DNA from: Oscillospiraceae bacterium
Lineage (GTDB): Bacteria > Bacillota > Clostridia > Monoglobales > WRAG01
Direction: 5' to 3'
DNA length: 53,495 bases
Assembly: GCA_009780345.1 (NCBI GenBank)
Contig: WRAG01000012.1
Location: forward strand, 1-53,495
Of this stretch, positions 5,557 to 53,495 are shown in pieces. Under the pieces are notes generated by a model. It made no database searches. It saw only the letters and a list, made by a program, of their open reading frames with translations, and was not told where the DNA came from. Position numbers and translations under genes: made by a program. Positions within the stretch are counted from its first letter, which is position 1; the number at the start of each line of letters is the position of its first letter.

Positions 5557-5608
5557 TTTTAACACTCTCCTTTTTATATTTTTAAGTATTTCTATAGTTT
5601 ACGTATTC

Positions 5609-6346
5609 TTTTGCACCTGCGGTGCGGGCTTAAAACCTTTTCAGCGAAGTCGCTGTAGCAATTGCGCTTGTCAGCGCAGGACGACAAGGGTTTATTGAAA
5701 CCCTTGTCAAGCCCCAAAAATTTTTTTCAAAAAAATTTAGTAAAACTTGCGGCGCAAACGCGCTTTCGCGCTATTAAAACCGCGCCGCTATTTGGGTTAG
5801 CGAACCGCATTCGCGGTAAATGAGACTTAGCTTGCGTATTATGCAAGCTGTAGTCGAATTATCCAGTGAGCGTAAGCGAGTCGGGAAAGACTAGCGAGTA
5901 CGCACGCCGCGCTCGTTCGAGAGCGACCCGCGCCTAAAAGCGCGAGATGTTTTTGGGGGAGGAGCGAGTTGTTTGCAGTAACTTTCGCCCGTGGTTCCGC
6001 CAGCGGGGCACCCGCGCGTCTTTTGCGTGGGTCGCGGCGGGGAGGGCGACGGTTTTAGTCAAGTTTTTGGCGCGCAAAAACTTGCTGGATTGGCAAGGAC
6101 TGGTCCTTGCCGCGCCGCGCGCGCCCGCGCAACGCCCGCCGCCTCAGCGGCAAAAAGGTTTTTAGGGCAAAGCCCTAAAAACTATGCGGCGTTCGCCGCA
6201 AGGTCTAAGGCGCAACGCGCCTTAACCCCGCGCCCGTTGGGCGCACATATGCGCTTGTCAGCGCAAGACACCCTGCGCCTGTCGGCGCAAAAACGGGTTT
6301 ATAGGGCATTCGCCCTATAATAAAGGGGAGCAAACGCTCCCCCCCA
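5609..6346. repeat. Hairpin-mosaic repeat block R1
   Basis: This 740-bp gap between gdhA and carB has no convincing gene. It is a string of short hairpins shared with blocks R2-R10. Examples are GACAAGGGTTT/AAACCCTTGTC (5683-5708), AGCTTGC/GCAAGCT, CAAGTTTTT-GGCGCGC-AAAAACTTG, GGCAAGGAC/GTCCTTGCC and TTTTTAGGGC/GCCCTAAAAA. Its first 170 bp match the start of block R9 module by module. Open frames across it (for example 5947-6165) are arginine/alanine-rich artefacts. Relative to the flanking minus-strand genes it is inverted compared with R2. Confidence 0.85.
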
Positions 6347-6357
6347 TAATATAAATA

Positions 6358-7704
<1,347 letters not shown>

Positions 7705-9445: not shown

Positions 9446-9494
9446 CCGTTTTTTGCGAATAAAAAATTATTATTTTGCGGACAATGTTTATAAA

Positions 9495-9578
9495 GATCAT
9501 TGCATGTAGAAATGCAATCATTTCTACCGCAAAATTCTTGATTTTGCATATTGAATTTAAAAAATTCAAGCAATGATC
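9495..9578. other. Cloverleaf-like four-way hairpin element, not a tRNA
   Basis: An outer 9-bp stem GATCATTGC (9495-9503) / GCAATGATC (9570-9578) encloses three perfect hairpins. They are TAGAAATG-caat-CATTTCTA (9507-9526), GCAAAAT-tcttg-ATTTTGC (9529-9547) and TTGAATT-taaaa-AATTCAA (9551-9569). Linkers are only 0-3 nt. It has no tRNA landmarks (no GTTCGA, CCA or anticodon loop). It lies in a 250-bp gap with no gene, between the divergent tRNA-Arg and a small protein gene. Confidence 0.75.
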
Positions 9579-9595
9579 ATTGCAATGAGGTGTTT

Positions 9596-9659
9596 AAAAA
9601 TTTTCGATGAAAATTTTTGGCGGCGCTATGCGCCGCGGCGAAATAGCTTCGCTATTTCG
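9596..9659. repeat. Run of three perfect hairpins
   Basis: Directly after the cloverleaf come AAAAATTTT-cgatg-AAAATTTTT (9596-9618), GCGGCGC-tat-GCGCCGC (9620-9636) and CGAAATAGC-ttc-GCTATTTCG (9639-9659), nearly abutting. They end about 20 nt before the ribosome binding site of the 63-residue gene, so they may form its leader. Confidence 0.7.
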
Positions 9660-9696
9660 GCAGTACACTCTCATTATAAAGGAGATGATATACCAT

Positions 9697-9896: not shown

Positions 9897-9925
9897 TTGA
9901 CAAGCTTTGCGATATTGTGTACAAT
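9897..9925 (+). promoter_or_regulatory. Promoter of the M-box/mgtE transcript
   Basis: TTGACA (9897-9902), a 17-bp spacer and TACAAT (9920-9925), placing the transcript start about 10 nt before the conserved riboswitch core. Confidence 0.85.
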
Positions 9926-9940
9926 AAGTATAAGTAATAT

Positions 9941-10110
9941 AACTTGTTAGGTGAGGCTCCTAAAAGAACACAGGCTGCTGCCCTTAAATGTCGAGAGACG
10001 CCATTAGGGTATAACAGGCATAGTCGGATTAAGGCGTGCTTAATGTAGCTGGTTTGCTTTCTAAATCTACGTCTTTTAGTGCTAAAACTCATACGAGGGG
10101 TTGAATAGCT
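9941..10110 (+). ncRNA. M-box (ykoK leader) Mg2+ riboswitch
   Basis: The conserved M-box pieces occur in order: GTTAGGTGAGGCTCCT (9946-9961), GCTGCTGCCC, AAATGTCGAGAGACGCCA, then AATGTAGCTGG and GTGCTAAAACTC. This RNA folds around several Mg2+ ions when the metal is plentiful. It sits between a strong promoter and an intrinsic terminator ahead of mgtE, the classic arrangement for shutting off Mg2+ uptake by early termination. Confidence 0.95.
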
Positions 10111-10240: not shown

Positions 10241-11668
10241 ATGGATTCGGACGGTAGTAAGGGGAATAATACTAATCATTTAATATCGGAGGTAACACAA
10301 ATGACACTACACGAAAAAATCCTGTCTCACATCAAAGGCAAGGATATGGCGGGGCTGAAAAACTTGATTGCGAGCACGGAAGAGCTGGAATTTCTTGACG
10401 CGTTCTACGATTTGTCACCTGAAGAGCAGGTAATCGCGTTTCGATTGCTCGCGAAGGATAAGGCATTATTAATATTTGAAGAGTTAGACACAGACGAGCA
10501 GCAGAATTTGTTGCATTCGTTTACCGATCAAAGGGCAATAGAGCTTGTGAACGAAATGGCGCCGGACGATAGGGTGAAATTGTTGGAAGAAATGCCCGCC
10601 GTTGTCGCGAAAAAGCTTATCGGTTCGCTTTCTTCCGAAGAACGGCAAGTCACCAACGCCTTGATGGGGTATCAGCCTGAAACGGCGGGCCGTATAATGA
10701 CGCCCGAGTATATCTCGCTTCGGCGCGAAATGACGGCGGACGAAGCGTTGGCAAAAGTAAGAACACAGGCGAAAGATAAGGAAACAATCTATACATTGTT
10801 CGTAACCGACAATTCAAAGAAGCTCGAAGGCGTGCTTACGCTGAAAGAATTGCTTACCGCTGACGGTGACACAAAAATAGACGATATTATGTCGAAAAAG
10901 GCGGTAAAGGTGTCTACCGACACCGACCAAGAGGCAGTTGCGCGAACGTTGCAGGAGCTTGACCTTTTGGCGATTCCCGTTGTAGATAAGGAAGAGCGTT
11001 TGGTGGGTATCGTAACCATCGACGACGCGATTGACGTTTTGGAAGAAGAATATACCGAGGACATCTTCGACCAAGCCGGTCTTGCGGATATTACGGGCAA
11101 CGAATCCGACCGAAGCGAGATTCTTATAAATGGAAGCATGTGGAAAATTTGGAAAGTGCGATTACCTTTCTTGATAATCACGTTAGCCGGAGGACTCATC
11201 GCGGCAAGTATTATGGGCGGCTTTGAAGAAGCGTTGGAAACTATTACAGCAGTAGCCTTTTTTATACCATTGATTATGGACATGGGCGGTAGTGTCGGCA
11301 CGCAATCTTCCACTCTTTTTGCGCGCGCCGTCGTGTTGGGACATATTCAACCGAAAAAGTTTGCAAAACATTTCCTAAAAGAAATTGGTATCGGACTTAG
11401 CATGGGAATTTTGATAGGAGCCGCCGCCGGGATTATTGCCGCTTTTTGGCGAGGAGCGCCTGCCGTATTGGGGGTTGCTGTTGGACTTGCGGTGATTGTA
11501 ACTACGACATTAGCCTCGTTATTGGGATTCTTGATTCCATATGTGTTGATAAAGTTCAACGTAGACCAAACGGCAGGCTCTGCACCGATCATTACATCTA
11601 TTAAGGATATTGCGGGACTTTTAATCTATTTTTTATTTGTAAGCATATTCTTGGGAAATTTGATGTAG
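10241..11668 (+). CDS. mgtE: Magnesium transporter MgtE
   Basis: A 475-residue Mg2+ channel. In order it has an N-terminal alpha-helical domain (about 30-150), a CBS pair that senses cytosolic Mg2+ (about 150-280, with LTLKELLTADGD and VGIVTIDDAIDVL), and a membrane part with about five helices from residue 310. The selectivity region MDMGGSVGTQSS is present. Two start sites are plausible: ATG 10241 after AGGAGGTGAG, and in-frame ATG 10301 (MTLHEKIL) after CGGAGGT. The second matches homologue starts better. It is controlled by the upstream M-box. Confidence 0.96.
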   Translation: MDSDGSKGNNTNHLISEVTQMTLHEKILSHIKGKDMAGLKNLIASTEELEFLDAFYDLSPEEQVIAFRLLAKDKALLIFEELDTDEQQNLLHSFTDQRAIELVNEMAPDDRVKLLEEMPAVVAKKLIGSLSSEERQVTNALMGYQPETAGRIMTPEYISLRREMTADEALAKVRTQAKDKETIYTLFVTDNSKKLEGVLTLKELLTADGDTKIDDIMSKKAVKVSTDTDQEAVARTLQELDLLAIPVVDKEERLVGIVTIDDAIDVLEEEYTEDIFDQAGLADITGNESDRSEILINGSMWKIWKVRLPFLIITLAGGLIAASIMGGFEEALETITAVAFFIPLIMDMGGSVGTQSSTLFARAVVLGHIQPKKFAKHFLKEIGIGLSMGILIGAAAGIIAAFWRGAPAVLGVAVGLAVIVTTTLASLLGFLIPYVLIKFNVDQTAGSAPIITSIKDIAGLLIYFLFVSIFLGNLM

Positions 11669-18052: not shown

Positions 18053-18603
18053 TTTGAAAAAAGTTTTGCAAAAATTGCGCCCAACGGGCGCGGGCTTTTA
18101 GGGCTTTGCCCTAAAAATCCATTACTCGGGTCCGTCCCGAGGGCGTGTGTCCTGCCGGACGGGCGGTAAGGGCTCTGCCCTTACCAATCCCGGTCGCCTG
18201 GCGATCACAAACGCACAAACCGCGATTTGTGCCGCGAGCGGCGACAAAAAAACTGGGCGAGCGAGCCGCATTCGCGGAAAGACTAGTGTGATATAGCACT
18301 GCGCTCCTTTTAAGAGCGATCCGCGCCTAAAAGCGCGAGATATTGCTTGGTTAGGGTGCTATGTTTGTAGTGACTTTCGCCCGCGGTTCCGCCAGCGGGG
18401 TACCCGCGTGTTTTTTGCGTGGGTCGCGGCGGGGAGGGCGACGGTTTTAGTCAAGTTTTTCCCGCGCAAAAACTTGCTGGATTGGCAAGGACTGGTCCTT
18501 GCCGCGCTGCGCGCGCCCGCGCACCCGGTCTAAGGCGCAACGCGCCTTTGACTCGCGCCCGCAGGCGCAAACCCTAACAAAATTTGATATTTAAAGAAAT
18601 AAG
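18053..18603 (+). repeat. Hairpin-mosaic repeat block R2
   Basis: This 550-bp gap has no credible gene. Modules in order are GCGCCCAACGGGCGC, TTTTAGGGC/GCCCTAAAA, GGTAAGGGC/GCCCTTACC, the conserved AATCCCGGTCGCCTGGCGAT flank, AAGTTTTT/AAAAACTT, GGCAAGGAC/GTCCTTGCC, and a final CCCTAACAAAATTTGATATT leader with AAGGAGG. The leader reads straight into the 18618 gene. Blocks R3, R6 and R7 share the same ending. Confidence 0.85.
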
Positions 18604-18617
18604 GAGGCAAACACCAC

Positions 18618-20690: not shown

Positions 20691-20705
20691 GAGGAGCCGT
20701 TTCAC

Positions 20706-21246
20706 GGCAACGATTTTGCGCCAACGGGCGCGGGTTGTTAGGGCTTTGCCCTAACAACCCATTACTCGGGTCCGTCCCGAAAGCTTATGACCTGCCGGTC
20801 GGGCATTAAGGGCTCTGCCCTTAATAATCCCGGTCGCCTGGCGATCACAAACGCCAAAAGGCGGCGATTTGTGACGCAAGCGGCGACGAAAAACCGCAGA
20901 TAGCCGCATACGCGGAAAGAATAGCGAGATGTGGCACTGCGCTCGTTCGAGCATGCGGCTTTTGCCGCCGTAGTCATTGAACTGAGAGGCGAGTTGGATG
21001 CACTATTTTAGCGGCGCGTTTATGATAGCGCGAAAGCGCGTGTGCGCCGCAAGTTTTACTAAATTTTTTGTTAAAAAATTTTCGGGGCTTGACAAGGGCT
21101 TCGATAAGCCCTTGTCGCTATGCGGCAGCCGCCGCAAACGCCCACAGAGCTTCGCTCTGAAAAAAGGTTTTTAGGGCAGAGCCCTAAAAGCCCGCGCCAC
21201 GGGCGCAAACCCTAACAAAATTTGATATTTAAAGAAAATAAGGAGG
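20706..21246 (+). repeat. Hairpin-mosaic repeat block R3
   Basis: No gene is visible in this 540-bp gap. It shares its first 200 bp with R2. The stems are changed on both arms: TTGTTAGGGC/GCCCTAACAA where R2 has TTTTAGGGC, and ATTAAGGGC/GCCCTTAAT where R2 has GGTAAGGGC. GACAAGGGCTT/AAGCCCTTGTC is at 21091-21116. It ends in the shared CCCTAACAAAATTTGATATT leader directly before rhaM. Confidence 0.85.
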
Positions 21247-21253
21247 AAAAAAC

Positions 21254-22407: not shown

Positions 22408-23115
22408 GGGCGTTGCCCCTGTGACCCCTCCGCGGGAGCGGTTGCGCCCTGCGGGCGCGGGTTTTTAGGGCTTTGCCCTAAAAACCCATTATTCAGAGCG
22501 AGGCTCTGGGGGCTGTTGCGCGGGCGCGCGCGGCGCGGCAAGGACCAGTCCTTGCCAATCCAGCATTTGAGACTTCGCTTGTGTGATTTTTCACAAACGG
22601 TAGTCGAAAAGTGCAGGGGCGTAAGATTTTGCTTTCAAAATCCACAGCCATCTGCCAAACTTTTGCGCGCCAAAAGTTTGACCAAAAGCGTCGCCCTCCC
22701 CGTCGCGACCCTTCCCGACAAAAGGCGTCGGGTGGGTGCCCCGCTGACGGAACCGCGGGCGAAAGTTAGTGCAATCAACGCACTTTAACCAAAGAAAATC
22801 TCGCGCTTTTAGGCGCAGTTCGTTCTCGAACGGGCGCGGCATTATATCTCACTAGTCTTTCCCGACTCCCGTTGGTCGCTGGATAATTCGACTACAGCTT
22901 ACAAAATACGTAAGCTAAGTCTCATTTACCGCGTATGCGGTTCGCTAACCCAGTTTTTCTGTCGCCGGCTTTGGCGCGAATCGCGTTTTTTGCGTTCGAC
23001 GCCATAGGCGACCGGGATTGATAAGGGCAGAGTCCTTATCGCCCGTCCGGCAGGACATACGCTCGCCGCCGCAGCGGCAAAACCCTGCGCCCTTCGGGCG
23101 CAAAAAAAGGAGCTA
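22407..23115. repeat. Hairpin-mosaic repeat block R4
   Basis: A 700-bp gap with no credible gene, inverted relative to R2. It includes GGTTTTTAGGGC/GCCCTAAAAACC, GGCAAGGAC/GTCCTTGCC, CAAACTTTT-gcgcgcc-AAAAGTTTG, AGCTTAC/GTAAGCT and GATAAGGGC paired with GTCCTTATC. The stretch 22564-22656 is the module that reappears, inverted, as the kduI leader (36346-36445). It ends just before the lyxK ribosome binding site. Confidence 0.82.
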
Positions 23116-31904: not shown

Positions 31905-32490
31905 GCTGTCAAGCGCATATTTGCGCCTGCGGGCGCGGGCATTTTTGCCGCCACGGCGGCGGGGTTTTTGCGGGCTTCGAAGCCCATCTTTGTTTGTCAA
32001 GGACCAGCCCTTGACAATCCCGCAAGTTTTTGCGCGCCAAAAACTTGACTAAAAGCGCCGCGCTCACGCACGTGCTTACAAACCAAGCACACGTGGCGCG
32101 GAAGCGAGTACAATCAACTCGCCCCTACCCCAAAATATCTCGCGCTTTTAGGCGCGGGTCGGTCTCGAACGAAAGCAGTAATATATCTCGCTAATCTTTC
32201 CCGACTCCCGTTGGTCGCTGGATAATTCGACTACAGCTTGTAAAATACACAAGCTAAGTCTCATTTACCGCGAATGCGGTTCGCTAACCCAGCTTTTCTG
32301 TCGCCGGCTTTGGCGCAAATCGCTGCTTTTTGGCGTTTGCGACCATAGGCGACCGGGATTGGCAAGGGCAGAGCCCTTGTCGCCCGCCCGGCAGGGCATT
32401 GGCTTCGGAGCCCCGCTCTGAATAATGGGTTTTAGGGCAAAGCCCTAAAAATTATGCGGCAATTGCCGCAAATATGCGCTTGTCAGCGCA
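31905..32490 (-). repeat. Hairpin-mosaic repeat block R5
   Basis: A 590-bp gap without a gene. On the minus strand it has the R2 module order: GGGC/GCCC hairpin, AAGGGC/GCCCTT with the AATCCCGGTCGCC flank, then CAAGTTTTT/AAAAACTTG and GTCAAGG/CCTTGAC. Changed stems include AGCTTGT/ACAAGCT and GTGCTT/AAGCAC. It is co-oriented with the downstream ATL gene. Confidence 0.83.
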
Positions 32491-37289: not shown

Positions 37290-37822
37290 GGACGAAGTCC
37301 CTGCATTCCTTTTGCCGCGGGAGCGGTTGCGCCCAACGGGCGCAGGTTTTTAGGGCTTTGCCCTAAAAACCCATTGCTCGGGTCCGTCCCGAGGGCGTGT
37401 GTCCTGCCGGACGGGCGATAAGGGCTCTGCCCTTACCAATCCCGGTCGCCTGGCGGTCACAAACGCACAAACCGCGATTTGTGCCGCAAGCGGCGACAAA
37501 GAAACTGGGTCAGCGAACCGCGTTCGCGGAAAGAATAGCGAGATATAGCACTATGCCCGTTCGAGAGCGACATATATACGCACCCTCGTTTCCGCCAAGC
37601 GGGGCACCCGCGCGTAGTTTGCGTGGGTCGCAGGCGGCGGGAGGAGTTTTTGTTAAAACTTTTTCTGAAAAAGTTTTTCGGGGTTCGTTAAGGGTATTCG
37701 ATAATACCCTTGACAAACAAAGACGGGCTTCGAAGCCCAAACAAAAGCCCGCGCCCGCAGGCGCAAACGCTACAGAGACACGACCCTAACAAAATTTGAT
37801 ATAAAAGACAAAGACAGGAGGA
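37290..37822 (+). repeat. Hairpin-mosaic repeat block R6
   Basis: This 530-bp gap between kduI and kduD has no gene. It begins like R2 (GCGCCC/GGGCGC, TTTTTAGGGC/GCCCTAAAAA, GATAAGGGC paired with GCCCTTACC) with the AATCCCGGTCGCCTGGCG flank. Later it carries GTTAAGGGTATT/AATACCCTTGAC (37687-37714). It ends in CCCTAACAAAATTTGATAT (from 37784) and AGGAGG, directly leading kduD. Confidence 0.84.
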
Positions 37823-37829
37823 AAAATTC

Positions 37830-41767: not shown

Positions 41768-42122
41768 TTCAGAGACCGTCTCTGAGGGCGTGTGCCCGTC
41801 TGGCATGAGGGCGACAAAAGTTAGCGAGCCGCGTTCGCGGAAAAATTAGTGCATGCGAACGCCGTTCCAGTCGAGCATGCGGCTTTTGCCGCCGTAGGTA
41901 CTAAACTGAAAGGATATTGTTCGCAGTTCTCAATGAGCGGCGCGTTTTTGATAGCGCGCGAGCGCGTTTGCGCCGCAAGGTTTGATAAAACTTTTTAAAG
42001 TTTTTCGGGGTTCGTTAAGGGTGTTCGATAACACCCTTGACAAACAAAGCCCGCGCCCGCAGGCGCAAAACGCTACAGAGGCACACCCTAACAAAATTCG
42101 ATATTTAAAGAAAGTAAAGAAA
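41768..42122 (+). repeat. Hairpin-mosaic repeat block R7
   Basis: A 355-bp shortened member of the family, no gene. It includes TCAGAGAC/GTCTCTGA, GGCGGC-type arms, GTTAAGGGTGTT/AACACCCTTGAC (42014-42041) and GCGCCCGCAGGCGC. It ends in CCCTAACAAAATTCGATATT (from 42086), leading into pgi. The missing ligA BRCT domain lies on its 5' side. Confidence 0.8.
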
Positions 42123-42135
42123 GGAATGATATAAA

Positions 42136-43499: not shown

Positions 43500-43790
43500 T
43501 TGCAAAAGCGACGTTCGTACTTGGTAATTTTTCCCGACTCGCTTACGCTTACTGGATAATTCGACTACAGCTTGCAAAATGCGCAAGCTAAGTCTCATTT
43601 ACCGCGAATGCGGCTTGCTAACCAATGTTTTTATCGTCGCCGGCTTTGGCGCAAATCGCCGTTTTTTGGCGTTTGTGACCATAGGCGACCGGGATTATTA
43701 AGGGCAGAGCCCTTAATGCCCGCCCGGCAGGGCAATGCTCTCGGAGCCTCGCTCTGGAAAAAGTCTGCGCTCGTAGGCGCGAAATATAAG
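43500..43790. repeat. Hairpin-mosaic repeat block R8
   Basis: About 290 bp in inverted orientation relative to the flanking genes. It includes AGCTTGC-aaaatgc-GCAAGCT, ACCGC-gaat-GCGG, the GGCGACCGGGATT flank, and ATTAAGGGC/GCCCTTAAT. No gene is visible. The lipoprotein's AAGGAGG lies just after it. Confidence 0.8.
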
Positions 43791-48612: not shown

Positions 48613-49070
48613 CTTGGCAAGCGCGGGCTTAAAACCTTTTCAGCGAAGTCGCTGTAGCATTTGCGCTTGTCAGCGCAGGACGACAAGGATTTATCGAAAT
48701 CCTTGTCAATCCACGAAAAACTTTAAAAAGTTTTATCAAACAGGCGGCGCAAACGCGCTATTGCGCTATTAAAAGCGCGCCGCTAAAGGTGTGTAAACAT
48801 CTACGTGTTAGTTAAGCACCTACGGCGGCAAAAGCCGCAAGCTTGACTGATACAGTGTTATATATCGTTAATCTTTCCGCGAATGCGGTTCGCTAACCAA
48901 TGCTTTTTTCGTCGCCGGCTTTGGCGCAAATCGCGTTCTTTGCGTTTGCGTCCATAGGCGACCGGGATTGGCAAGGGCAGAGCCCTTGTCGCCCGTCCGG
49001 CAGGACATAAGCTCGCCGCCTCAGCGGCAAAATGGGTTTTTAGGGCAAAGCCCTAAAAACCATTTTGCCG
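48613..49070 (-). repeat. Hairpin-mosaic repeat block R9
   Basis: A gap of about 440 bp upstream of the deacetylase with no gene. Its first 170 bp match R1 module by module, with the changed stem GACAAGGATTT/AAATCCTTGTC (48682-48707). It then carries GGCGACCGGGATT, GGCAAGGGC/GCCCTTGTC and TTTTTAGGGC/GCCCTAAAAA. The last arm supplies the leuS stop codon. On the minus strand it is co-oriented with the deacetylase gene. Confidence 0.83.
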
Positions 49071-51371
49071 AACCACGATATTGATAAGCTTCTTCGGCAC
49101 GGCGATAATCTTCACGATTTCGGCGCCGTTTATTAGGTTTTGGATATCTTCGCTCGTTTTGACGAAATCTTGCATATCCGCGGCGGTCATATCGGGGGAA
49201 AGCATAAGTTTGGTCTTGATTTTTCCGTTGATTTGGACGACGACTTCGACTTCGCTCACCACAAGCGCGGCGGGGTCGAATTTCGGCCAGGGTTGCTCGC
49301 CTGCGTTGCCTGATTTTCCGAGTTTTTTCCATAGAATTTCGGTGGTTTCGGGCGCGAAAGGCGAGAGCATAACAATCACCGCTTGCAAGTCGTCGGGCGA
49401 TATTTCGTCGGCTTTACTCATTACGTTTACGAGTTCCATGATCGCGCTGATTGCCGTGTTGAAGTGGAATCGGTCGATATCTTCGGTAACTTTTTTGATA
49501 CATTTGTGAACGTCGAATCGCAGTTTGGATTCGCCGAATTTCTTTTCGAATAAGCGTTCGACGCGCTTTAGGAAGCGGTATGAGCCTTCCACCGCGTCGT
49601 CGTTCCACTCTAAGTCGCGTTCGGGCGGGGCGGCGAACAGGATAAACAGCCGCGCCGTGTCTGCGCCGTATTTTTCGATGATTTCTTCGGGGCTTACAAC
49701 GTTGCCTACCGATTTGGACATCTTAGTTCCGTCTTTTAGCACCATTCCTTGGGTTAGCAGGTTTTCGAACGGTTCGTCAACCGACAAATATCCGAAATCG
49801 CTTAAAACTTTCGTGAAGAATCGCGCGTAAAGCAGGTGCAATATCGCGTGCTCGACGCCGCCGATGTATTGGTCGACGCCCATCCAGTAGTCGGCTTTTT
49901 CTTTACTGAACGGAAGTTCGGTGTTTTTCGGATCGCAATAGCGCAAGAAATACCACGACGAACAGACGAACGTGTCCATTGTGTCGGTTTCGCGCTTGGC
50001 GTCAATACCGCATAGCGGGCATTTGCAGTTTACGAATTCTTCGCATTCGCTGAGTGGTGATTTACCTTGCCCTGTGAATTTCACGTTTTCGGGGAGCAGA
50101 ACCGGCAAATCTTTCTCGGGAACGGGGACGATTCCGCATTTGTCGCAGTAAATGATCGGAATCGGCGCGCCCCAGTAGCGTTGCCGCGAAATCAGCCAGT
50201 CGCGCAGGCGGAAGTTGACTTTTTTCATGCCTAAGCCTTTGTTTTCGATATGTTCGGTGATTTTATCGTTTGCTATGTCGCTGTCAAGTCCGTCGAATTC
50301 GCCGGAGTTTATGATGGTTCCTACCTCTAAGAACGGTAGTTCTTTTTCCTCGCCATCATTTGGTTTAATTACCGGACGGATTGGGAGATTATACTTTGTC
50401 GCGAACTCGAAATCGCGGTCGTCGTGACCGGGAACCGCCATAACGACGCCTGTTCCGTAGTCGAGTAGGACGTAATTCGCCAAGTATAGCGGAATTTTCT
50501 CGCCGTTTAGCGGATTTATCATATGAACGCCGCTGAAAACGCCCTCTTTTGCGGCGTCGGTGGCGGTTCGGTCGATATCGGTTTGGTTTTGCACTTTTTT
50601 GATCAGCGCAAGACATTCTGCCTCTTGCGGAGTGCCCGCAATCAGCTCTTTTACGAGCGGATGTTCCGGCGCGATAACCATGTATGTTACGCCGAAGATT
50701 GTGTCGGGGCGGGTGGTGAAAACAGTCAGTTTTTTATCGCTTCCGTCGATTTGGAAGTCAACTTCCGCGCCCTCGGAGCGTCCGATCCAGTTTGCTTGCA
50801 TGGATTTTACCTTGTCGGGCCAGCCGGGAAGCTTGTCGAGGTCGTCGAGCAGACGCTGCGCGTAGTCGGTGATTTTGAAGAACCATTGTTCGAGGTCTTT
50901 TTTATCCACCGTCGCTTTGCAGCGTTCGCAGTTGCCGTTTACAACCTGTTCGTTCGCGAGAACCGTCGCGCAGTCGGGACACCAGTTGACGTAGGATTTA
51001 TTTTTGTACGCCAAGCCGTTGTTGAAGAACGTTAGGAACATCCACTGTGTGAATTTGTAGTAATCGGGGGAAGATGTCGCGAATTCGAGGTCCCAATTGT
51101 AGGAAAGATTCAGTTTTTGCAACTGCTCGCGCATGACGTCGATGTTTTTATACGTCCAAGCGGCGGGCGGGGTTCCATTTTTGATTGCCGCGTTTTCGGC
51201 GGGCAAGCCGAACGAGTCCCACCCCATCGGGTGAAGCACGTCGAAGCCTTGCATTGCCTTATACCGCGCGACAACGTCGCCGATTGAGTAGTTGCGCACA
51301 TGTCCCATATGTAGGTTTCCCGACGGATACGGGAACATTTCTAAAACGTAGTATTTTTTCATTTGTGACAA
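49053..51371 (-). CDS. leuS: Leucyl-tRNA synthetase with a short N-terminus
   Basis: A 772-residue class I synthetase. HMGH lies at 21-24, against 49-52 in E. coli LeuRS, so the usual first 28 or so residues (with the KWQ..W helix) are missing. The zinc region CPDCATV, editing domain [14 protein letters not shown] in [10 protein letters not shown] and the C-terminal [11 protein letters not shown] domain are intact. The start is TTG 51371 (or ATG 51362); a stop lies 7 codons upstream in frame, so no longer form exists here. Element C sits directly upstream and block R9 overlaps the stop. Confidence 0.95.
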
Positions 51372-53228: not shown

Positions 53229-53495
53229 CTTTTTTGCGCCCTGCGGGCGCGGGCTAAAGGCGCGTTGCGCCTTAGACCAAAAAACTTTTGAAAAAAGTTT
53301 TACAAAATTTGCGCCTGTGGCGCAGGTTTTTAGGGCGAAGCCCTAAAAACCCTTTTTGCCGCTGAGGCGGCGAGGCGTTGCGCGGGCGCGCGCGGCGCGG
53401 CAAGGACCAGTCCTTGCCAATCCAGCAAACTTTTGCGCGCCAAAAGTTTGATCAAAAGCGCCGCGCTCACGCACGTGCTCAAAAACCGAGCACAC
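53229..53495 (-). repeat. Hairpin-mosaic repeat block R10 (runs off the window)
   Basis: The last 267 bp have no gene. Modules are GCGCCC/GGGCGC, AAACTTTT/AAAAGTTT, TTTTTAGGGC/GCCCTAAAAA, GGCAAGGAC/GTCCTTGCC, CAAACTTTT-gcgcgcc-AAAAGTTTG, and GTGCTC-aaaaacc-GAGCAC where R5 has GTGCTT/AAGCAC. It is upstream of, and co-oriented with, the LCP gene. Confidence 0.82.

What the first reader, a model, noticed from the sequence alone, without database searches (positions are those of the whole stretch)
9495..9578. Perfect four-way cloverleaf that is not a tRNA
A 9-bp closing stem and three hairpins of 8, 7 and 7 bp, with loops of 4-5 nt and joins of 0-3 nt, make an 84-nt cloverleaf with no mismatches. 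It lacks every tRNA consensus. The precision of all four stems is unlikely by chance in a non-coding gap. It may be a recombination or replication structure, a tRNA mimic, or a leader element for the next small gene.
Basis: seen in the sequence. Interest (0 to 1): 0.58.

Follow-up and report, generated by a model that had tools for sequence, protein, structure and literature searches.

The report
Mobile DNA repeat shaped like two cloverleaves
The cloverleaf is one half of a roughly 190-base DNA repeat that folds into two cloverleaves and is scattered through the spaces between genes of this bacterium; it looks like a small gene-less mobile element whose shape is kept while its letters change, not like a tRNA or a gene switch.

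Summary
The cloverleaf is real and far beyond chance, but it is only the left half of a 190-bp element (9489-9678). The right half is a second three-armed cloverleaf. The element reads TAT[AATG..CATT]G C[AATG..CATT]ATA, with palindromic ends and centre. The same genome holds 10 full copies, apparently intergenic, plus 8 truncated or contig-end pieces. A goat-rectum Clostridia genome holds more than ten diverged copies and a genome of another order holds one. All have 3 + 3 arms, mostly with different arm sequences. Stems covary strongly in both multi-copy sets. Loops occur inverted between copies, a mark of DNA template switching. Wobble pairs show no clear strand bias and orientation to genes is not shared, so a cis-acting RNA leader is unlikely. 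It is no tRNA and matches no Rfam family. Ends abut TATA, usually TTATAA, and other hairpin modules share single TTATAA junctions. Best reading: a MITE-like, structure-rich, non-autonomous mobile repeat. Its transposase and target-site duplication were not found. New variant of a known kind.

The parts
9489..9678 (+). Whole double-cloverleaf element (190 bp)
   Evidence: Boundaries from alignment of 14 copies, CM match 9489-9678, ssDNA fold z -11.3
9488..9493 (.). Left TTATAA junction; left end TATAAAG here is this copy's variant of the family end TATAATG
   Evidence: Alignment; end statistics over 48 ends
9674..9679 (.). Right TTATAA junction; right end CATTATA (9672-9678)
   Evidence: Alignment; end statistics
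9492..9581 (+). Cloverleaf 1: closing stem 9492-9503 / 9570-9581 (9 bp perfect at 9495-9503 / 9570-9578, 12 bp in the consensus), three arms
9506..9527 (+). Arm 1 (9 bp, loop 4; loop seen as CTTG or CAAG types between copies)
9529..9547 (+). Arm 2 (7-8 bp, loop 3-5; loop seen as AAA or TTT/CTT between copies)
9551..9569 (+). Arm 3 (8 bp, loop 3; invariant stem in 14 copies)
9578..9587 (.). Central palindrome CATTGCAATG between the two cloverleaves
   Evidence: Read from sequence; kept, as CATTGCAAYG in most copies, in all three genomes
9584..9675 (+). Cloverleaf 2: closing stem 9584-9593 / 9665-9675 with one bulged base, three arms
9596..9618 (+). Arm 4 (10 bp)
9620..9636 (+). Arm 5 (7 bp, G+C rich)
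9639..9659 (+). Arm 6 (9 bp); its sequence is also recognisable in the goat-rectum genome
9697..9888 (+). Neighbour, not part of the element: small ORF (63 aa, no Pfam or NCBIfam match) whose Shine-Dalgarno-like AGGAG (9680-9684) abuts the right end

Best explanation
A short non-coding dispersed repeat of the MITE kind. It ends in terminal inverted repeats (TATAAYG..CRTTATA) and sits at TATA/TTATAA sites between genes. Its body is two abutting three-armed cloverleaves joined at a CATTGCAATG palindrome. SHOWN: dispersed, apparently intergenic copies, shared ends and TATA boundaries, 3 + 3 arm architecture in three genomes, compensatory changes, inverted loops, single TTATAA junctions with other hairpin modules. 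INFERRED: it was spread by a transposase acting in trans on the ends; TTATAA is the preferred target; the hairpins form in DNA (exposed single strands or cruciforms); template switching within the arms keeps the stems perfect and flips the loops while the arm sequences turn over.
For: Own genome: 10 full and 8 partial places. G396, another order: 1 copy. No copy lies in the middle of a long gene. Ends: A at positions 2 and 4 in 48 of 48 analysed ends, T at position 1 in 46 of 48, T just outside in 35 of 48. Covariation: 10 pairs with double changes in the own-genome set (0 of 500 shuffles reach it; slid controls 1-2) and 17 in G050 (0 of 500; slid 1-3). Arm-2 loop AAA in 7 and TTT/CTT in 5 of 12 copies with no intermediates; arm-6 loop AAA once among mostly TTT-type loops. 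Fold strong on both DNA strands. Other hairpin modules join at one shared TTATAA.
Against: No transposase with matching ends was found: one Y1 (IS200-type) match with a stop in its frame in the own genome and none in G050; no IS630-type DDE_3 match in any of the three genomes. Only these two families were tested. No empty site was available, so a TATA duplication cannot be told from a TATA belonging to the ends. Mobility is inferred from copies, not seen. One own-genome copy (C3a) is overrun by the 5' part of a 423-aa open frame, and several ends overlap called ORFs by 4-45 bases. In G050 wobble pairs lean to one strand (26 GT against 9 AC cells; 12 against 9 after leaving out two pairs).
Confidence: 0.7

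Rival explanations
1. A structured RNA: a 5' leader or small RNA with two four-way junctions, spread as a repeat and used to regulate neighbouring genes.
For: Compensatory changes in six of eight helices of the own-genome set and eight of nine of the G050 set; 9 of 13 own-genome copies with a called downstream gene read the same way as that gene; the window copy abuts a Shine-Dalgarno-like site; three ends have an exact TTGACA 17 nt from a -10-like box at the element end.
Against: In G050 only 2 of 10 read with the downstream gene. Both strands fold alike and the model matches both strands of G050 copies with similar scores. GT and AC mismatch cells are 31 and 20 in the own genome, 23 and 20 without the loop-closing pair. 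No Rfam match to the element at E 0.1. Neighbour genes are diverse.
Confidence: 0.12
2. Passive hairpin-rich junk: a decaying repeat whose perfect stems come only from template-switch mutation, with the 3 + 3 architecture inherited from one ancestor and under no selection.
For: Loop inversions and multi-base stem changes fit template switching, which by itself makes compensatory changes (PMC8794818, passages). Halves keep weak sequence similarity across genomes (z 2-9). Truncated forms exist (C3b, C49, L077).
Against: Three arms per half are kept in all 12 halves refolded with corrected cuts, including a G050 copy whose left arms differ outright from its relatives (L075). Ends and centre are kept as well.
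Confidence: 0.13
3. REP/BIME- or REPIN-like element mobilised by a RAYT (Y1) enzyme or serving as a nucleoid or gyrase site.
For: Intergenic, palindromic, mosaic with other modules; one Y1_Tnp match in the own genome.
Against: The Y1 match has a stop in its frame, and its flanks as read show no element end; G050 has no Y1 match. Units are 190-210 bp, not 20-40 bp palindromes.
Confidence: 0.05

Closest known systems
Bacterial MITEs (miniature inverted-repeat transposable elements)
   Same: Short, no gene, A+T-rich, intergenic, terminal inverted repeats, highly base-paired (general features as in PMC3049150 and PMC10969869, passages read)
   Different: Internal body is two three-armed cloverleaves; no parent transposase and no proven target-site duplication here
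BOX elements of Streptococcus pneumoniae
   Same: Composite intergenic repeats made of modules that combine and form extensive secondary structure (PMC3049150, passages)
   Different: No sequence comparison was made; here arm sequences are replaced while the architecture is kept, and modules meet at TTATAA
REP / BIME / REPIN repeats
   Same: Palindromic, intergenic, mosaic arrays (abstracts)
   Different: Much larger unit, different ends, no matching Y1 system found
Template-switch-shaped hairpins
   Same: Inverted loops and multi-base compensatory changes (PMC8794818, passages)
   Different: There described for RNA genes; here for a dispersed repeat in DNA

Membership tests
MITE | Short non-coding unit in many dispersed, mostly intergenic copies | tested here: met
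   10 full and 8 partial places in the own genome; gene context
MITE | Terminal inverted repeats | tested here: met
   TATAAYG/CRTTATA; position counts over 48 ends
MITE | Target-site duplication | tested here: inconclusive
   TATA at both ends, but palindromic and no empty site available
MITE | Ends match those of an autonomous element that supplies the transposase | tested here: inconclusive
   Only PF01797 (2 genomes) and PF13358 (3 genomes) searched; no matching element
MITE | Transposition observed | not testable with these tools
   Needs strains and experiments
tRNA / tRNA-like | Recognised tRNA or Rfam tRNA-like fold | tested here: not met
Known structured RNA (Rfam 15) | Match to a covariance model | tested here: not met
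   gathering, whole window; E 0.1, four loci
cis-regulatory leader | Constant orientation upstream of a gene class | tested here: not met
   9 of 13 with the gene in the own genome, 2 of 10 in G050; neighbours diverse (heuristic ORF picking)
REP/REPIN-RAYT | Companion Y1 transposase linked to the repeat | tested here: not met
   G050 is 74% complete, so absence there is weak

The most novel reading that the evidence does not exclude
A mobile element recognised by shape: an unknown enzyme or host pathway moves, or a host factor reads, the folded double cloverleaf itself in single-stranded or cruciform DNA. Only ends, centre and arm number would then be selected, while arm sequences are free to turn over and halves to be swapped between elements.
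Probability: 0.17. Interest if true: 0.82.

Novelty: new variant of a known kind. Interest (0 to 1): 0.5.

Why it matters
Small hairpin repeats are common in bacteria, but a repeat with two three-armed cloverleaves, kept in number and layout across genomes while most arm sequences differ, is unusual. It gives a natural test bed for whether stem covariation in DNA repeats comes from selection on a folded DNA substrate or from template-switch mutation alone, and it warns that strong covariation can arise in elements that are probably not functional RNAs.

Tried and rejected
tRNA mimic: ARAGORN and Rfam give nothing at the element.

Leader of the next gene: rejected as a general function because copies sit in varied orientation next to unrelated genes.

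Phage or plasmid origin: no blastn match of the window copy in plasmids or phages, of the G396 copy in plasmids, or of a G050 copy in phages. The arm-6 pattern and the neighbouring-module pattern gave 0 matches in viral contigs. The 14 IMG/VR matches to the loose architecture pattern, and the 4 class genomes with one single-strand match, do not fold as double cloverleaves; the loose pattern read backwards gave 3 control matches in 391 genomes, so those few hits are at chance level.

IS630-type or Y1-type partner: none found that fits.

Promoter-targeted insertion: three exact TTGACA boxes lie 17 nt from a -10-like box at an element end (C10b, C4, L070), but with one mismatch allowed the spacings 16-18 hold only 3 ends against a background of about 0.5 per spacing, so this is left as a hint.

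Corrections on the way: I first read the G050 element in the opposite orientation; because the halves are pseudo-symmetric and the model matches both strands, orientation between genomes is only moderately certain. Two cuts between halves were misplaced (L069, G396) and were redone. A first Pfam scan of the small ORF used the wrong frame and was repeated. L070 was given a start one base earlier than.

Literature: eight searches did not show a double-cloverleaf bacterial repeat; only listings and the passages named were seen, and the library lacks most subscription papers.

Full report
THE OBSERVATION. The 84-nt cloverleaf at 9495-9578 exists as described and is far from chance: RNA -31.3 kcal/mol, z -5.0, and the reverse strand z -5.3. 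Reading on, 9584-9675 is a second cloverleaf with three arms and a 10-bp closing stem carrying one bulge. The pair forms one unit, 9489-9678. As single-stranded DNA the unit folds with z -11.3 on + and -9.7 on -. There is no tRNA or Rfam match on it (one search tested one sister copy, two G050 loci and the G396 locus).

IT IS A DISPERSED REPEAT. A search of the window's own genome (2.05 Mb, 59 contigs) gives 22 blastn matches. I sort them into 10 full copies (C12, C41, C53, three on C10, C3, C6, C9, C36) and 8 truncated or contig-end pieces (C3b, C49, C4, a second piece on C53, and the contig ends C42, C18, C47, C32); the 4 left over are 27-base reverse-strand matches of the palindromic arm 1 at places already counted. 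The nine other full copies are 85-87% identical to the window copy. Of 60 genomes searched by blastn only the own genome matched. With the covariance model R1, 3 of 51 genomes of the order matched: the own genome; G050 with 4 listed places; and G013 with one weak match (E 1e-4) that I looked at and do not count, since it shows one long hairpin and no double cloverleaf. A blastn search of G050 with its own copy gives 16 matches at about 13-14 element places. The exact pattern of arm 6 plus right end found two loci in the GTDB genome collection, both in the goat-rectum Clostridia MAG RGIG3044, with contig lengths (44552, 13574) equal to those of G050 contigs (list). A narrower pattern around the centre matched 1 of 391 class genomes, the own one. 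With model R2, 2 of 391 class genomes matched: the own genome and G396, of another order; in that run only 6 candidates per genome were scored, so misses are likely. In the family of G396, 1 of 16 matched.

ANATOMY. Aligned copies and folds give one plan in all three genomes: TAT[AATG .. three arms .. CATT]G C[AATG .. three arms .. CATT]ATA, with small variations such as AACG/CGTT at the right end of G050 copies. Ends and centre are palindromic; each closing stem begins with these bases and then differs between genomes while staying paired. In one search, all 12 halves of 6 copies fold into three simple arms. In one search, 32 of 34 halves of 17 copies showed a three-armed loop, 31 with the two halves cut correctly plus one half on the wrong side of a misplaced cut; the copies with misplaced cuts (L069, G396) were redone. 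Closing stems found range from 2 to 13 bp, the short ones partly in decayed copies. By comparison 81 of 6800 shuffled halves gave a three-armed loop with a closing stem of at least 6 bp. In G050 copy L075 the left half has arms of quite different sequence from its relatives, while its right half is 81-89% identical to theirs, so halves seem to be exchanged. G396 shares the arm-2 sequence with the own genome. Halves keep weak similarity between genomes (z 2.2 to 8.7), and left and reverse-complemented right halves of one element are weakly alike (z 3.1 to 7.7), which suggests a common origin for the two cloverleaves.

COVARIATION AND LOOPS. With the full 76-pair structure on 14 own-genome sequences, 95.3% of cells pair, 10 pairs show changes on both sides, no shuffle of 500 reaches this, and slid controls give 1-2. 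The RNAalifold consensus alone, which leaves out the closing stems, gives 4 such pairs and a slightly unfavourable covariation term (+0.97). In 9 G050 sequences, with 85 pairs, 96.1% pair, 17 pairs show double changes, 0 of 500 shuffles, slid controls 1-3. These counts treat related copies as separate, and some columns of L075 are poorly aligned. Loops differ as reverse complements: arm 2 AAA in 7 and TTT/CTT in 5 of 12 copies with nothing in between; arm 1 CTTG against CAAG types; arm 6 AAA once. Published work shows that template switching in replication makes both multi-base compensatory changes and inverted loops (PMC8794818; abstract listing and passages). So covariation here shows that pairing was kept in evolution but does not prove an RNA function.

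DNA OR RNA. If one strand were selected as RNA, G-T cells should outnumber A-C cells. They are 31 to 20 in the own genome (23 to 20 without one loop-closing pair) and 26 to 9 in G050 (12 to 9 without two pairs): a weak lean at most. Orientation to the next called gene is with the gene in 9 of 13 own-genome cases and 2 of 10 in G050. This rests on simple ORF picking, with C12 judged by its small ORF and mgtE because the script picked a spurious ORF there; 4 of 17 own-genome and 2 of 12 G050 places had no called downstream gene. Copies lie beside unrelated genes. Most lie clear of long ORFs; C3a is overrun by the 5' part of a 423-aa open frame and one G050 copy (L067) by a 157-aa one, which I take for over-long or spurious frames.

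ENDS AND NEIGHBOURS. Over 48 ends, positions 2 and 4 are A in all, position 1 is T in 46, position 3 T in 47, and the base just outside is T in 35. In the own genome four ends abut another hairpin module ending TTTGTGTTATAA by a strict motif; from the folds I also count C18 and C3b. Solo copies of those modules also have TATA at most of their ends. G050 copies likewise meet other repeated modules at TTATAA. This is what one expects if TTATAA is both the target and the end of the elements, but a site-specific recombination model would look the same. No empty site could be examined.

MECHANISM. I think it most likely that this is a MITE-like element spread by a transposase in trans, inserting at TTATAA, with hairpins formed in DNA and kept perfect by template switching. 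The spread and the DNA-level folding are inferred. The enzyme is missing: one Y1 match with a stop in frame in the own genome, none in G050, and no DDE_3 match in three genomes.

RELATION TO THE KNOWN. It meets the MITE criteria of size, copy number, ends and structure; duplication and parent element remain open. General MITE and BOX features were read in passages of PMC3049150 and PMC10969869; PMC2267715 describes stem-loop families, some of complex fold, predicted on both strands (passages). I found no report of a double-cloverleaf repeat in eight searches of the held library (listings). I therefore call it a new variant of a known kind.

Noticed in passing
5570-6360, 18063-18614, 20703-21252, 22430-23084, 31946-32471, 37315-37826, 41820-42128, 43508-43761, 48623-49079, 53234-53495: A second, much larger and G+C-rich family of hairpin-chain repeats (about 250-700 bp) fills many gaps of this window; one copy used as query gives 79 matches in the own genome. 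Its origin and function are unexplained.
   Followed up: partly
L014:2275-2430, L012:3820-3910, L010:1-283 and copies in L084, L087-L090: Other hairpin modules with TTATAA ends and a small AACACG..TGTGTT hairpin near one end abut the double cloverleaf through single TTATAA junctions.
   Followed up: partly
9936-10107: M-box magnesium riboswitch upstream of an mgtE gene (10241-11668), with a strong promoter-like site at 9897-9925.
   Followed up: no
L097:1400-1960: An IS200-like Y1 transposase gene with a stop in its reading frame; no double-cloverleaf end seen next to it.
   Followed up: partly
L066:1026-1099: Sub-threshold match to Gut-1 RNA (RF01706) near a G050 copy.
   Followed up: no
L012:3908-4046, L022:2009-2105, L077:1501-1616, L010:136-283: Shortened copies in which whole arms or one half are lost while the rest still folds; in L010 the arms of cloverleaf 2 are replaced by one long perfect hairpin.
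   Followed up: partly
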